Part shown: in pieces, positions 44,896 to 53,067 of the stretch
Layout: each line of letters starts with the position of its first letter
How positions within the stretch are numbered: the stretch's first letter is position 1
Assembly (NCBI RefSeq): GCF_902726565.1
Contig: NZ_CACVAF010000001.1
Location: 186,001-250,000, forward strand
Direction of reading: 5' to 3'
DNA from: Yersinia vastinensis
GTDB taxonomy: Bacteria > Pseudomonadota > Gammaproteobacteria > Enterobacterales > Enterobacteriaceae
DNA: 64,000 nt
The notes under the pieces: generated by a model
The model's database searches: none
Told to the model about the DNA's origin: nothing
What the model saw: only the letters and a program-made list of their open reading frames with translations
Program-made: the position numbers and the translations under genes

Positions 44896-46347
44896 CTAAC
44901 TTAAATCGATATTCTTGTGTCCGAAAAACCAAGTCAGAATAAATCCAGCGATATATGAAATCAGTAGGCCGGCGATATAAACCAGCATTCCGGCAAAGAT
45001 CCCTTGTCCTGATGTCATCAGCGGAATAGACACTAAACCTGATGGACCAAATACGGTATTCAAGCCTACCGGTAGCCCCATCCAAGCAACAAGACCAATA
45101 AAGAAGCCACCCGCAGCCCCCCCGACACAGGCGGTAATAAATGGCTTCAGGCGCGGCAACGTCACACCATAAATAAGTGGCTCACCAATACCCAATAGTC
45201 CAGGGAAGATAGCCCCTTTAATTTGAGTTCGCAGAACAGACCCTTTTGGTGACCGCGCATAAAGAGCTAATGCCGCCCCCACTTGGCCTGCACCCGCCAT
45301 GGCTAAAATAGGAAATAGCGAGTTAAATCCTTGCGCATCCATTAAGGCAAAATAGACCGGCACAAACCCTTGATGGATACCAAAAACCACGGCAATCAGG
45401 AATAGCCCAGCGAGAATAGCCGTGCCAAAAGGGTTACCATTTAAATGCATAAACAACCAAGACATGCCTTTAAACAGCTCGCCACCTAAAGGCATAATGA
45501 CCACAAAGGTAATTGCACCGGTAATCAGTAGCGTGATTGTCGAAGTGAGGATCATATCCAGATTATCAGGAATAAATCGGCGCACCTGCCGCTCAATCCA
45601 TGCACCCGCCATACACGCCAGTAGAACACCAATAATATTGCCGCGGGGATCAATCACCAGCCCAAAGAAGTTTTCCATCCCAGCGTAATAGCCAACGGTC
45701 CCTTCTGGTACATAACGTAAAATAAATAACGAAGCGATAATCGCACCGTTGACGCCGGTCCCACCAAAAGCTTTCTGAGTATTAAAACCAATGAGGATAC
45801 TCAGGAAAGTAAATAACCCGATGCTGAACACTTTCATGTAAGCAATAAGCCCCACCAACCATGAGGATGGGGTTACACCTTCCAAAACCAGTGTTTGTTG
45901 CAGTAGCGTTGCTATCCCCAGCAATAAGCCTGCGGCTATGAAGCCCGGGATAAGTGGGGTAAAGATGGTCGCGAATTTGGTCAGAAAGTTATGAACAGCA
46001 CTTTTCTGTTTTGCTTTCATCTGTTGTTTGGTCTGGCTTGCCAGCACTTGTAGATCAACATCATCAGTGCTGCCATTGGCCTGCTGTGGTTCAGCACTTA
46101 AAACCTTGTTCATCATCTCGCTGGCCGTTTGAGCTTTGCCCGGGCCAAGAATAATTTGCAGTTGATCGTCGCCATTGACCACCCCCATGACTCCGGGGAT
46201 TTTCTTCAGGTTTTCTGATTGTATGAGCTGACGATCTCGTAACGTGAGACGCAACCTTGTCATGCAGTTTCCGCAGACGGTGATATTTTGACGCCCACCA
46301 ATGCAGAGTAAAATTTGTTCTATCGTCGAACCCGTTATTTTTGCCAT
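44896..46347 (-). CDS. murP: N-acetylmuramic acid PTS transporter MurP (EIIBC)
   Basis: This gene encodes 483 residues. The EIIB domain (1-85) has the phosphorylated Cys28 in CGNCMTRLRL; the EIIC domain from about 115 has ten membrane helices and the GIGEPLIYGVTLPRLKPF motif. It has no EIIA domain, so it depends on the glucose EIIA (Crr), as known for E. coli MurP. It imports MurNAc and delivers MurNAc-6-phosphate. It follows murQ by 2 bp and is co-transcribed with it. Confidence 0.93.
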   Translation of the reverse strand: MAKITGSTIEQILLCIGGRQNITVCGNCMTRLRLTLRDRQLIQSENLKKIPGVMGVVNGDDQLQIILGPGKAQTASEMMNKVLSAEPQQANGSTDDVDLQVLASQTKQQMKAKQKSAVHNFLTKFATIFTPLIPGFIAAGLLLGIATLLQQTLVLEGVTPSSWLVGLIAYMKVFSIGLFTFLSILIGFNTQKAFGGTGVNGAIIASLFILRYVPEGTVGYYAGMENFFGLVIDPRGNIIGVLLACMAGAWIERQVRRFIPDNLDMILTSTITLLITGAITFVVIMPLGGELFKGMSWLFMHLNGNPFGTAILAGLFLIAVVFGIHQGFVPVYFALMDAQGFNSLFPILAMAGAGQVGAALALYARSPKGSVLRTQIKGAIFPGLLGIGEPLIYGVTLPRLKPFITACVGGAAGGFFIGLVAWMGLPVGLNTVFGPSGLVSIPLMTSGQGIFAGMLVYIAGLLISYIAGFILTWFFGHKNIDLS

Positions 46348-46349
46348 AG

Positions 46350-47258
46350 TTATACTTTGATCTCCTGCCGTGCTTTACGGATAAATCCTTTATTCTTGTT
46401 AAGGATCGCTCCCGCATCTTCAGCAGACAGACCACTTAGTATCATCATAATGGCTGTTTTGCAGTGGCGGTTGCATTCATTAAGTGCGTCTTGCGCCTCA
46501 TCGGTGGAACATTCCGTTGCCTGAACAACAATGTCGATCTGGCGTTGTACCAACTTGGCATTGGTTGCCTCAACATCCACCATCAGGTTGCTATAAACTT
46601 TACCACTTCGGATCATGGCGCCAGTCGTTAGCATGTTTAGAATTAATTTCTGTGCGGTTCCTGCTTTCATTCGTGAAGAGCCGGTGACAACTTCTGGCCC
46701 GACGAGGGCTTCAATGGCGATATCTGCTACTTTGCTCATTTCGCTATTCTGATTACAAGAGATGGCCACAACCGTCGCCCCAACACGATGCGCATAAGCC
46801 ATCGCTCCGAGGACATAGGGTGTGCGACCACTCGCAGCAATACCGACGAGCACATCACGGGCATTAAAGTTAAGGTTGCACAAGTCTTGTTCGCCCATTT
46901 CACGACTGTCTTCGGCATTTTCAACGGCCTGTAAAATAGCGGTATTTCCGCCAGCAATGAGGCCAACGACCATCTCCCGTGGTGTACCATAAGTCGGTGG
47001 GCATTCACTGGCATCCAGAATGCCTAATCGCCCAGAAGTCCCTGCCCCACAGTAAATTAATCTGCCGCCTTGTGCGAAAGCCTCTGCAATAAGATCAACC
47101 GCCTTAGCTATTTCAGGCAGTTTTTCTTCTACCGCAAAAGGGACTTTTTTATCCTCATTATTGATAATCTCGAGCATATCCAGTGTTGAAAGAGTGTCAA
47201 TTTGAGCACTAGCGGGGTTTCGGCTTTCCGTAACCATTGAGCTTAGATTAATCTTCAT
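46350..47258 (-). CDS. murQ: N-acetylmuramic acid 6-phosphate etherase MurQ
   Basis: This gene encodes 302 residues with a SIS domain (about 55-215). Conserved segments are CGAGTSGRLGILDASECPPT (with the catalytic glutamate) and TGSSRMKAGTAQKLILNMLTT. It cleaves the D-lactyl ether of MurNAc-6-P to give GlcNAc-6-P and D-lactate. It is the first gene of murQP, divergent from murR. Confidence 0.96.
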   Translation of the reverse strand: MKINLSSMVTESRNPASAQIDTLSTLDMLEIINNEDKKVPFAVEEKLPEIAKAVDLIAEAFAQGGRLIYCGAGTSGRLGILDASECPPTYGTPREMVVGLIAGGNTAILQAVENAEDSREMGEQDLCNLNFNARDVLVGIAASGRTPYVLGAMAYAHRVGATVVAISCNQNSEMSKVADIAIEALVGPEVVTGSSRMKAGTAQKLILNMLTTGAMIRSGKVYSNLMVDVEATNAKLVQRQIDIVVQATECSTDEAQDALNECNRHCKTAIMMILSGLSAEDAGAILNKNKGFIRKARQEIKV

Positions 47259-51683: not shown

Positions 51684-51735
51684 TATTAATTAAGCTATAT
51701 CAGAATATTAATTCATTAATCGTGAGAGATAAGGA

Positions 51736-53067
51736 ATGAGATATTTCCTGCAAACATTATTGTGTCTGTGTTCATTATTTATGATAAATGTTGGCTATGC
51801 CAAGGTCACTCAAGACATTATTTTAGGTATCGATCAGGAAAATGTGTATGGACCACAACTTAAAAATAAGCGCATTGGCTTAATGGTAAACCAAAGCTCG
51901 ATTAATAAAGAAGGGCGTCATACCATCGACAAATTATTATCTGAGCAAAAAAAATACCATTTCACTGTGACAACATTATTCTCTGTTGAGCATGGCATAC
52001 GTGGAAATGCTGAGGCTGGGTTAGGCGATGATAATCATATTGATAAACAGAGCGGTCTCCCTATTATTTCGTTGTATGGTCGAGATAAGGATGGTCGCGT
52101 GCGTGCACATCCTACCGAGGCACAATTATCTGATGTCGATATTGTTATTTATGATTTACAGGATGTGGGTGTCCGTTATTTTACCTACACCATTTCTATG
52201 CACCATATGCTGGAAAGTCTGCAAAAGTACCATAAGCAGTTTATGGTGTTCGACAGACCTAATCCGCTGGGTAATCATGTCTACGGACCAATTCTTGAAG
52301 AAGAGAATATCTCGGGTATAGGGATGCATCCTGTGCCTATGGTACATGGGCTGACGTCGGGTGAGTTTGCTAAGATGATAGTGAATGAGGGATGGCTAAC
52401 GCATTTTGATGATACTCATTGGAAAGCTTTTGGTGTCAAAGCCTATCAGTTTCCTCCTCAGAATTTGACGGTCATCGCCATGGGGAATTATACACATGAG
52501 TCACCGTATTCATTGCCGGTGAGACCTTCGCCCAATTTACGCAGTGATCTGGCTATTCATCTCTATCCTTCTTTGGGAATATTTGAAGCAACCAGTGTCA
52601 ATATGGGGAGAGGCTCGGATTATCCTTTTGAGCAATTAGGGTTCCCAAGTAAGGAGTTTTATATTAATACCTGTTATGACGTTGATATTAACCAGCAGAA
52701 AACAGGGTGGCCGCATGCGGGGAAAGAAGTCTGTGGCGAGAGATTTTCTGCAACAGATATAACCGATATCCAACCGACGATACGTTATTTTGTTGAATGG
52801 TGGTTCAAATTTAAAGAGGCGGGTTATTCAATGGTCATCCCACCACAAATGGAGTCCAACTATCTGGATTATCAGGAAAAATACTTTTTAATCCGTCCCC
52901 TTTGGCTCGCTAAATTAACCGGTACACGCAGTTTGGTTAAATTAATGGAAGAAGCCACAGAAAGGAAATTGACCATTGATGAAACAGTAAATTATCTAGA
53001 ATCCAACTGGCAACCCGGCATTAATAATTATTTAAAGCTACGCGAGAAATATAAAATCTATCCTTAA
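51736..53067 (+). CDS. namZ: Exported DUF1343 / GH171 exo-beta-N-acetylmuramidase, NamZ type
   Basis: This gene encodes 443 residues with a signal peptide (about 1-22, VGYA-KV). The DUF1343 family pattern is clear: GLMVNQSSINKEGRHTID, TLFSVEHGIRGNAEAG with a conserved acidic residue, VDIVIYDLQDVGVRYFTYT and FDRPNPLG. The B. subtilis member YbbC was characterised as NamZ, which removes MurNAc from the non-reducing end and acts with NagZ. Here it is the last gene of the nagZ-porin-namZ operon and is predicted to be periplasmic. It ends at a strong terminator. Confidence 0.88.
   Translation: MRYFLQTLLCLCSLFMINVGYAKVTQDIILGIDQENVYGPQLKNKRIGLMVNQSSINKEGRHTIDKLLSEQKKYHFTVTTLFSVEHGIRGNAEAGLGDDNHIDKQSGLPIISLYGRDKDGRVRAHPTEAQLSDVDIVIYDLQDVGVRYFTYTISMHHMLESLQKYHKQFMVFDRPNPLGNHVYGPILEEENISGIGMHPVPMVHGLTSGEFAKMIVNEGWLTHFDDTHWKAFGVKAYQFPPQNLTVIAMGNYTHESPYSLPVRPSPNLRSDLAIHLYPSLGIFEATSVNMGRGSDYPFEQLGFPSKEFYINTCYDVDINQQKTGWPHAGKEVCGERFSATDITDIQPTIRYFVEWWFKFKEAGYSMVIPPQMESNYLDYQEKYFLIRPLWLAKLTGTRSLVKLMEEATERKLTIDETVNYLESNWQPGINNYLKLREKYKIYP

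What the first reader, a model, noticed from the sequence alone, without database searches (positions are those of the whole stretch)
44896..53067. Gram-negative peptidoglycan-salvage cluster: exported NagZ, barrel channel and exported NamZ joined to murQP/murR
Seen: murQ-murP and murR lie beside an operon of an exported two-domain GH3 enzyme (KHFPGHG signature, Asp317), an outer-membrane barrel protein and an exported DUF1343 protein. Known: in B. subtilis NagZ and NamZ act outside the cell in sequence on GlcNAc-MurNAc chains and sit with murQRP; the usual enterobacterial NagZ is cytoplasmic. Inference: this is a complete exogenous MurNAc-polymer utilisation system, with the barrel as the import channel.
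Basis: partly seen in the sequence, partly recalled or inferred. Interest (0 to 1): 0.8.

Follow-up and report, generated by a model that had tools for sequence, protein, structure and literature searches.

The report
Yersinia cassette for eating cell-wall sugars
A portable six-gene block in Yersinia and related bacteria appears to let them take in pieces of bacterial cell wall, cut them in the space between their two membranes and burn the sugar, using what looks like an undescribed kind of outer-membrane channel.

Summary
Window 44896-53067 holds murP-murQ, divergent murR, then an operon: exported GH3 enzyme (B. subtilis NagZ type), barrel-like protein, exported NamZ. All 15 named loci found with the barrel have these three genes in order; 10 also have murPQ and murR beside them. 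In 25 Yersinia genomes NamZ and cassette-type MurQ occur in the same 15, MurP in those 15 plus one beside broken MurQ; 23 of 25 also have another, core-type MurQ. Flanks differ between genera, and 2 Providencia plasmids carry the three-gene module. The nagZ and murQ promoters share one layout: CRP-like box about 76 bp and TATTCC about 110 bp before the start codon; on the plasmids and in an unlinked genome the half-sites recur. The barrel has no Pfam, NCBIfam or PDB sequence relative; it shows a suggestive full-length resemblance to OmpG plus an N-terminal coiled coil. Most likely it imports GlcNAc/MurNAc oligosaccharides for periplasmic NagZ and NamZ, then MurP. "Complete" is not shown: no close YfeW-type protein was found. 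No activity, substrate or channel function was tested. New variant of a known kind (B. subtilis NagZ-NamZ-MurQRP).

The parts
44896..46347 (-). murP, PTS EIIBC for N-acetylmuramic acid
   Evidence: NCBIfam PRK09586 846 bits over cut-off 516; 63% identical to E. coli MurP
46350..47258 (-). cassette murQ, MurNAc-6-phosphate etherase
   Evidence: TIGR00274 441.5 bits; 61% to E. coli MurQ; the genome has a second, core-type copy at 58%
47313..47334 (.). CRP-like site, 76 bp before the murQ start codon
   Evidence: AAATGTGATGTTTATCACGGCA, same place in 11 of 11 loci; score 0.848, 1 of 2000 random 228-bp window segments reaches 0.80 and none 0.85
47363..47368 (.). half-site (TATTCC on the murQ strand), about 110 bp before murQ; candidate MurR operator
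47452..47457 (.). half-site (TATTCC on the murQ strand), about 197 bp before murQ and 35 before murR
47487..48347 (+). murR, RpiR-family regulator
   Evidence: Pfam HTH_6 and SIS; 43% to E. coli MurR
48514..48519 (.). TATTCC half-site, 194 bp before nagZ
48534..48539 (.). TATTCC half-site, 174 bp before nagZ
48590..48605 (.). palindrome GGAATA-ATAA-TATTCC (TATTCC 108 bp before nagZ), candidate MurR operator
   Evidence: one of 2 such sites in the 4.5-Mb genome, control pattern 1 site, so the genome-wide number is what chance gives
48632..48653 (.). CRP-like site, 76 bp before the nagZ start codon
   Evidence: AACTGTGATAATTATCACTTTA, within 4 bp of the same distance in 13 of 16 loci; score 0.870
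48708..50579 (+). exported two-domain GH3 enzyme of B. subtilis NagZ type
50598..51683 (+). outer-membrane-barrel-like protein: signal-like N-terminus, coiled coil about 22-57, barrel-like part 58-361 ending in Phe
51736..53067 (+). exported NamZ (NamZ_N plus NamZ_C)

Best explanation
The cassette is an accessory, portable system for using peptidoglycan sugars from outside the cell. The barrel (perhaps an OmpG-like porin with an added periplasmic coiled coil) lets GlcNAc/MurNAc disaccharides and short glycan chains through the outer membrane. In the periplasm the exported NagZ removes non-reducing-end GlcNAc and NamZ non-reducing-end MurNAc, in turn. MurP takes up and phosphorylates MurNAc; the cassette's own MurQ turns MurNAc-6-P into GlcNAc-6-P and lactate. 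MurR (relieved by MurNAc-6-P, as in E. coli) and CRP switch murQP and the nagZ operon together. Shown here: gene families, order, co-inheritance, separate core NagZ and core-type MurQ in the window's genome, a shared promoter layout. Inferred: enzyme specificity, barrel location and function, direction of transport, operator identity.
For: Family matches; positions K222/H223, D233/H235, D317 invariant in 8 of 8 aligned GH3 rows, core NagZ included; NamZ core motifs (EHG, DxQDxG, DRPNP, PSPNL) invariant in 9 of 9 rows. Barrel and NamZ occur in the same 6 of 198 family genomes. 15 of 15 named barrel loci have nagZ-barrel-namZ in order, 10 of 15 also murPQ and murR. In 25 Yersinia genomes NamZ and cassette MurQ sit in the same 15; MurP (E up to 1e-100) in 16, the extra one beside broken MurQ (Fisher p 5e-6 for NamZ and MurP, not corrected for shared descent). 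Core NagZ (no signal-like N-terminus; 31% identical) and a core-type murQ without murP in the 11 kb read lie elsewhere in the window's genome. Operon gaps 18 and 52 bp, no + strand terminator-like site. Promoters: CRP-like box 76 bp before murQ in 11 of 11 loci and before nagZ in 13 of 16; TATTCC about 110 bp before murQ in 9 of 11 and about 108 before nagZ in 11 of the 12 full-length upstream regions of that group. Where module and mur genes are apart: Providencia plasmids keep TATTCC at -197, -177, -112 before nagZ and Y. rohdei at -194, -174, -108; Klebsiella and Cedecea have a CRP-like box then GGAATA-N3-TATTCC before nagZ and before one of their two murQP operons. Barrel-OmpG end-to-end alignment: 2, 17 and 0 of 1000 dipeptide shuffles as good with three matrices.
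Against: No activity data. Of three beta-lactamase-family genes in the genome the best matches E. coli YfeW at 28% over 186 residues (B. subtilis AmiE itself was not compared). Providencia plasmids, Y. rohdei, Klebsiella, Cedecea, one MAG and genome G128 have the three-gene module away from murQP. Two of the 15 cassette genomes (G209, G210) show no core-type MurQ, so there the cassette copy is the only one found. A perfect palindrome is before nagZ in only 7 of 16 loci, in the murQ-murR gap in 1 of 11, before unlinked murQ in 2 of 5 genomes, and absent on the plasmids and in G128. In the shuffled control some 6-mer was shared in 8.7 loci on average and 11 at most, so the shared-word count alone is not decisive. 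Providencia's best CRP-like score is only 0.77.
Confidence: 0.7

Rival explanations
1. Own-wall recycling: the periplasmic enzymes trim the cell's own turnover products (including GlcNAc-anhMurNAc) before AmpG sees them, and MurP takes the sugars up; the barrel is a general or export porin.
For: E. coli MurP is annotated as also transporting anhydroMurNAc; in B. subtilis NagZ and AmiE process the cell's own turnover products outside the cell (PMC5061867, passages); in G209 and G210 no core-type MurQ was found.
Against: In the window's genome own recycling is already served by a core NagZ and a core-type MurQ, and 13 of the 15 cassette genomes have the core-type MurQ as well; 9 of 25 Yersinia lack both MurP and NamZ; a dedicated outer-membrane gene would not be needed.
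Confidence: 0.15
2. The barrel is not a sugar channel but another envelope protein (for example an anchor, adhesin or receptor) that places NagZ/NamZ.
For: No recognised porin family; conserved coiled coil at about 22-57 could dock partners.
Against: Best remote likeness is to OmpG over the whole barrel part; NagZ and NamZ have cleavable-looking signal peptides and no conserved lipobox, by eye.
Confidence: 0.1
3. The substrate is another GlcNAc/MurNAc-like glycan (chitooligosaccharide, glycoprotein glycan) and the mur genes are linked for another reason.
For: The GH3 also matches a GH3 beta-N-acetylglucosaminidase structure (6k5j E 1.7e-73); that GH3 enzymes act on chitooligosaccharides is recalled.
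Against: NamZ, MurP and MurQ are MurNAc families; the GH3 is far closer to NagZ of B. subtilis; promoter layout shared with murQP.
Confidence: 0.05

Closest known systems
B. subtilis murQ-murR-murP-amiE-nagZ-ybbC(namZ) cluster
   Same: Same enzyme set MurQ, MurR, MurP, exported NagZ, exported NamZ; gene order of the cluster read in PMC5061867 (passages); that ybbC is NamZ and its activity are recalled (founding JBC 2021 paper not held)
   Different: Gram-negative host; no amiE; a barrel gene between nagZ and namZ; divergent murPQ/murR arrangement; CRP-like sites
E. coli murR / murQP-yfeW divergon
   Same: MurP 63%, MurQ 61%, MurR 43% identical; divergent murR; regulation by MurR and CAP (reference title and passage in PMC5061867)
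   Different: E. coli K-12 has yfeW and no exported NagZ, NamZ or barrel beside it; no DNA match to barrel-namZ in 20,395 E. coli records; its murR-murQ gap shows no GGAATA
Tannerella forsythia MurNAc scavenging (murTKQ, AmpG)
   Same: Gram-negative use of outside peptidoglycan with MurQ (PMC7670621, PMC5388701, passages)
   Different: Uses AmpG and MurT/MurK, not the PTS; no relative of this barrel named in the passages seen
OmpG, 14-stranded monomeric porin of E. coli (strand number and monomer state recalled)
   Same: Suggestive end-to-end alignment W58-F361 to residues 27-301
   Different: Fails the Porin_OmpG Pfam test; has an extra N-terminal coiled coil

Membership tests
NagZ, exported B. 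subtilis type (GH3) | Two-domain GH3, full-length match, His-Asp dyad and Asp nucleophile (roles recalled) | tested here: met
   Residues 32-621 align to 3bmx; D233-T-H235 and D317 aligned to the matching positions
NagZ, exported B. subtilis type (GH3) | Beta-N-acetylglucosaminidase activity on GlcNAc-MurNAc | not testable with these tools
   needs enzyme assay
Enterobacterial cytoplasmic NagZ (NCBIfam PRK05337) | Score over the equivalog cut-off | tested here: not met
   181 bits, cut-off 207; the core copy scores 526.8
NamZ (Pfam NamZ_N and NamZ_C) | Both domains over the curated cut-offs | tested here: met
   214.1 over 26.9 and 50.1 over 25
NamZ (Pfam NamZ_N and NamZ_C) | Exo-muramidase activity | not testable with these tools
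   needs enzyme assay
MurR equivalog (NCBIfam PRK15482) | Score over cut-off | tested here: not met
   242.8 bits, cut-off 408; that it works like MurR rests on context
MurQ and MurP | Equivalog cut-offs | tested here: met
   441.5 over 302; 846.2 over 516
Porin_OmpG (PF09381) | Pfam match | tested here: not met
   no match in 5 of 5 family members scanned at E 10 nor in 17 of 17 at E 1; single members touch Porin_1 (0.056) and Autotransporter (0.033) weakly
OmpG-like barrel | Full-length similarity beyond composition | tested here: inconclusive
   6 of the 17 members used: 2, 17 and 0 of 1000 dipeptide shuffles reach the score with BLOSUM45, BLOSUM62, PAM250; hhalign E 0.16; best of 6 barrels compared
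Outer-membrane beta-barrel protein | Signal peptide, C-terminal aromatic, predicted barrel fold | tested here: inconclusive
   Signal-like N-termini by eye and invariant C-terminal F361 in 17 of 17; fold prediction unavailable

The most novel reading that the evidence does not exclude
The barrel founds a family of outer-membrane channels dedicated to peptidoglycan glycans (a 'muroporin'), an OmpG-like barrel with a coiled-coil stalk that feeds, and perhaps docks, two exo-glycosidases; the cassette moves between Enterobacterales genera and plasmids and gives its host a scavenger's diet of dead bacteria's walls.
Probability: 0.5. Interest if true: 0.7.

Novelty: new variant of a known kind. Interest (0 to 1): 0.55.

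Why it matters
To my knowledge (recall) no channel dedicated to peptidoglycan sugars is known in the outer membrane of enterobacteria; this gives a concrete candidate with strict genetic linkage and a clear test. It also brings the B. subtilis-type extracellular NagZ/NamZ route into Enterobacterales as an accessory trait besides core recycling, and proposes a function for a gene annotated as hypothetical protein on both plasmid records that carry it.

Tried and rejected
Structure prediction of the barrel: queue full and switched off, so no fold search was made. PDB and Pfam searches with the barrel, alone and as profile, gave coiled-coil chance hits and two single-member weak barrel hits. Barrel profile in 369 class genomes: own genome plus two short weak matches over the coiled-coil end (E 0.002 and 0.009). 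Hhalign against NanC, OmpL, ChiP, OmpF, LamB: 16 to 28 columns only. A simple alternating-hydrophobicity scan did not give a clean strand count and was not used. Genome-wide search for the palindrome as a regulon finder: only 2 sites (control pattern 1), the second between a chemoreceptor-like and a reductase-like frame (my reading of the frames), so no further regulon member was found. Yersinia monophyly of the module is not rejected (p-AU 0.109); that of the four Enterobacteriaceae rows only weakly (0.035), so transfer rests mainly on changing flanks and plasmids. E. coli murR-murQ gap shows no GGAATA.

Literature: ten searches listed, by title and start of abstract, no paper on a NagZ-barrel-NamZ module in Enterobacterales; four of the lists were capped (20 of 58, 20 of 29, 20 of 48, 8 of 12), and the library is open-access only. 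Five papers were opened, passages only: PMC9718411, PMC7670621, PMC13046382, PMC5388701, PMC5061867. PMC9718411 lists murPQ and anmK among genes regulated in an insect host by Y. enterocolitica W22703; direction is given by colour and was not readable.

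Full report
What is there. The six open frames exist at the stated coordinates. MurP and MurQ pass NCBIfam equivalog cut-offs; MurR is an RpiR-type regulator 43% identical to E. coli MurR but under the MurR equivalog cut-off. The GH3 protein matches B. subtilis NagZ (YbbD, 3bmx) over its whole mature length, E 3.7e-115, with the catalytic positions; one-domain hexosaminidase structures of the cytoplasmic NagZ type (identity of entries 5g1m, 4gvf, 1tr9 recalled) match at E 5e-33 to 4e-24. 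The third protein is NamZ by both Pfam domains; its best solved relative is the 'hypothetical protein' 4jja, E 9e-62. The middle protein has a signal-like N-terminus, an a/d-spaced apolar run (Y28, I32, L35, I39, I42, A49, L53, with K46 the exception; the first five apolar in 17 of 17 rows) and an invariant C-terminal Phe, and no family.

Whose genome.

The module is a real unit. Barrel and NamZ occur in the same 6 of 198 family genomes. A pattern-based scan of the genome collection with the barrel found 15 named loci (Yersinia 8, Serratia, Kosakonia, Rahnella, Klebsiella, Cedecea, Pectobacterium, one MAG); it finds close relatives only. 15 of 15 have GH3-barrel-NamZ in order (in L059 the barrel reads in two frames), 10 of 15 have murP-murQ and murR in the same arrangement, 1 is cut by its contig end, 4 have no mur genes within the stretch. 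Within the 25 Yersinia genomes held, NamZ is in 15, the cassette-type MurQ (82-100% identical) in the same 15, MurP in 16, the sixteenth beside broken MurQ pieces. A core-type MurQ (57-60% identical) is in 23 of 25; in G209 and G210, both cassette carriers, none was found. In the window's genome the core-type murQ stands beside an RpiR gene, with no murP in the 11 kb read, and a core NagZ without signal-like N-terminus is present. So in most carriers the cassette is an add-on to normal recycling.

It moves. The window, Y. alsatica, Y. frederiksenii, Y. proxima and Y. thracica have it after glsA. On the other side a tRNA-Met and rpoD follow in the window, Y. frederiksenii and Y. thracica, but not in the more than 6 kb held in Y. 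alsatica and Y. proxima. In the other genera, and in Y. massiliensis and Y. pekkanenii, none of gadC, glsA, rpoD, dnaG is in the stretch. Y. rohdei has murR-murQ-murP beside glsA and the three-gene module on another contig. Two of 72,556 plasmid records, both Providencia, carry the three-gene module. The tree of the three proteins puts Kosakonia and Y. massiliensis with Serratia, Rahnella and Pectobacterium (support 92/96, under the tool's mark), and the formal tests are weak.

Control. GH3, barrel and NamZ genes are separated by 18 and 52 bp. A CRP-like box lies 76 bp before murQ in 11 of 11 loci and at 73-77 bp before nagZ in 13 of 16; L061-L063 have it near -230. The window's two boxes score 0.848 and 0.870; of 2000 random 228-bp window segments one reaches 0.80 and none 0.85 (these segments are mostly coding). 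GGAATAA or its complement occurs in both gaps in 11 of 11 loci; in 200 column shuffles GGAATA was joint in 2.3 loci on average and 6 at most, but the best-shared 6-mer of any kind reached 8.7 on average and 11 at most. Position adds to this: TATTCC lies about 110 bp before murQ in 9 of 11 loci and about 197 in 10 of 11, and 106-109 bp before nagZ in 11 of the 12 full-length upstream regions outside L061-L063. So the two promoters have one layout.

The layout survives separation. Providencia plasmids, without mur genes in the 25 kb read, have TATTCC at -197, -177 and -112 before nagZ (second plasmid 4 bp further), Y. rohdei at -194, -174 and -108, G128 at -200 and -132; unlinked murQ has TATTCC at -197 and -110 (Y. 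rohdei) or -197 and -109 (G128), with a CRP-like box at -76. In Klebsiella and Cedecea nagZ has a CRP-like box then GGAATATTTTATTCC, and one of two murQP operons in each has a CRP-like box then GGAATAAAATATTCC; the other operon in each, and the MAG's, has half-sites only. Counted strictly, the perfect palindrome is before nagZ in 7 of 16 loci, in the murQ-murR gap in 1 of 11, and before unlinked murQ in 2 of 5 genomes; it is absent from 208,717 bp of other stretches, which include two with the module (L113, L129). That MurR is the protein that binds is inferred.

The barrel. Of six E. coli barrels compared with 6 of the 17 family members, only OmpG aligns end to end (mean score above 200 of 200 plain shuffles, z 4.4; others z -0.5 to 1.9; two non-barrels 0.4 and -0.3). 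With dipeptide-preserving shuffles and the coiled coil removed, 2, 17 and 0 of 1000 shuffles reach the score with BLOSUM45, BLOSUM62 and PAM250, not corrected for six templates. Pfam and hhalign do not confirm it. I take it as a suggestive lead to an OmpG-like channel.

Elsewhere in the class NamZ is in 26 of 369 genomes sampled (one match marginal, with stops), the barrel only in the window's own genome. Of the few NamZ neighbourhoods read, one has an exported GH3 and MurQ (L124), one a fusion to a beta-lactamase-family domain (L127), one a polysaccharide deacetylase and a putative glycosidase (L125). So exported NamZ in Gram-negatives is not unique to this cassette; the barrel, in these samples, is.

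Mechanism. Barrel import of short glycans, periplasmic alternate trimming by NagZ and NamZ, MurP and MurQ, under MurR and CRP: best reading, about 0.7. Missing steps: peptide removal and chain cutting. No close YfeW relative was found among the three beta-lactamase-family genes of the genome, so peptide-free glycans, other amidases (not searched) or peptide-tolerant enzymes must be assumed.

Noticed in passing
window 53214-53290 (-): tRNA-Met (CAT) gene between namZ and rpoD; it may mark an insertion site, as the flanks change elsewhere.
   Followed up: partly
window 40757-44817: Frames that read as gadB, gadC and glsA (names by recall) directly beside murP.
   Followed up: no
L116 8393-10316: A Yersinia genome (G204) with intact MurP and broken MurQ pieces but no NamZ, near a tRNA-Phe: a decayed cassette.
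   Followed up: partly
L059 8001-9085: Barrel gene of Y. massiliensis reads in two overlapping frames, while a near relative (L025) is intact.
   Followed up: no
G209 and G210: Two cassette-bearing Yersinia genomes show no core-type MurQ; the cassette copy may have replaced it.
   Followed up: no
L127 7700-10048: NamZ and a beta-lactamase-family (PF00144) domain in one protein, suggesting an amidase-NamZ fusion.
   Followed up: no
L113 and L114: Three-gene module on Providencia plasmids, with an lpxL gene downstream and fimbrial genes upstream.
   Followed up: partly
L117 and L118: In Y. rohdei the mur genes stay beside glsA while nagZ-barrel-namZ lies on another contig: the unit has been split.
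   Followed up: partly
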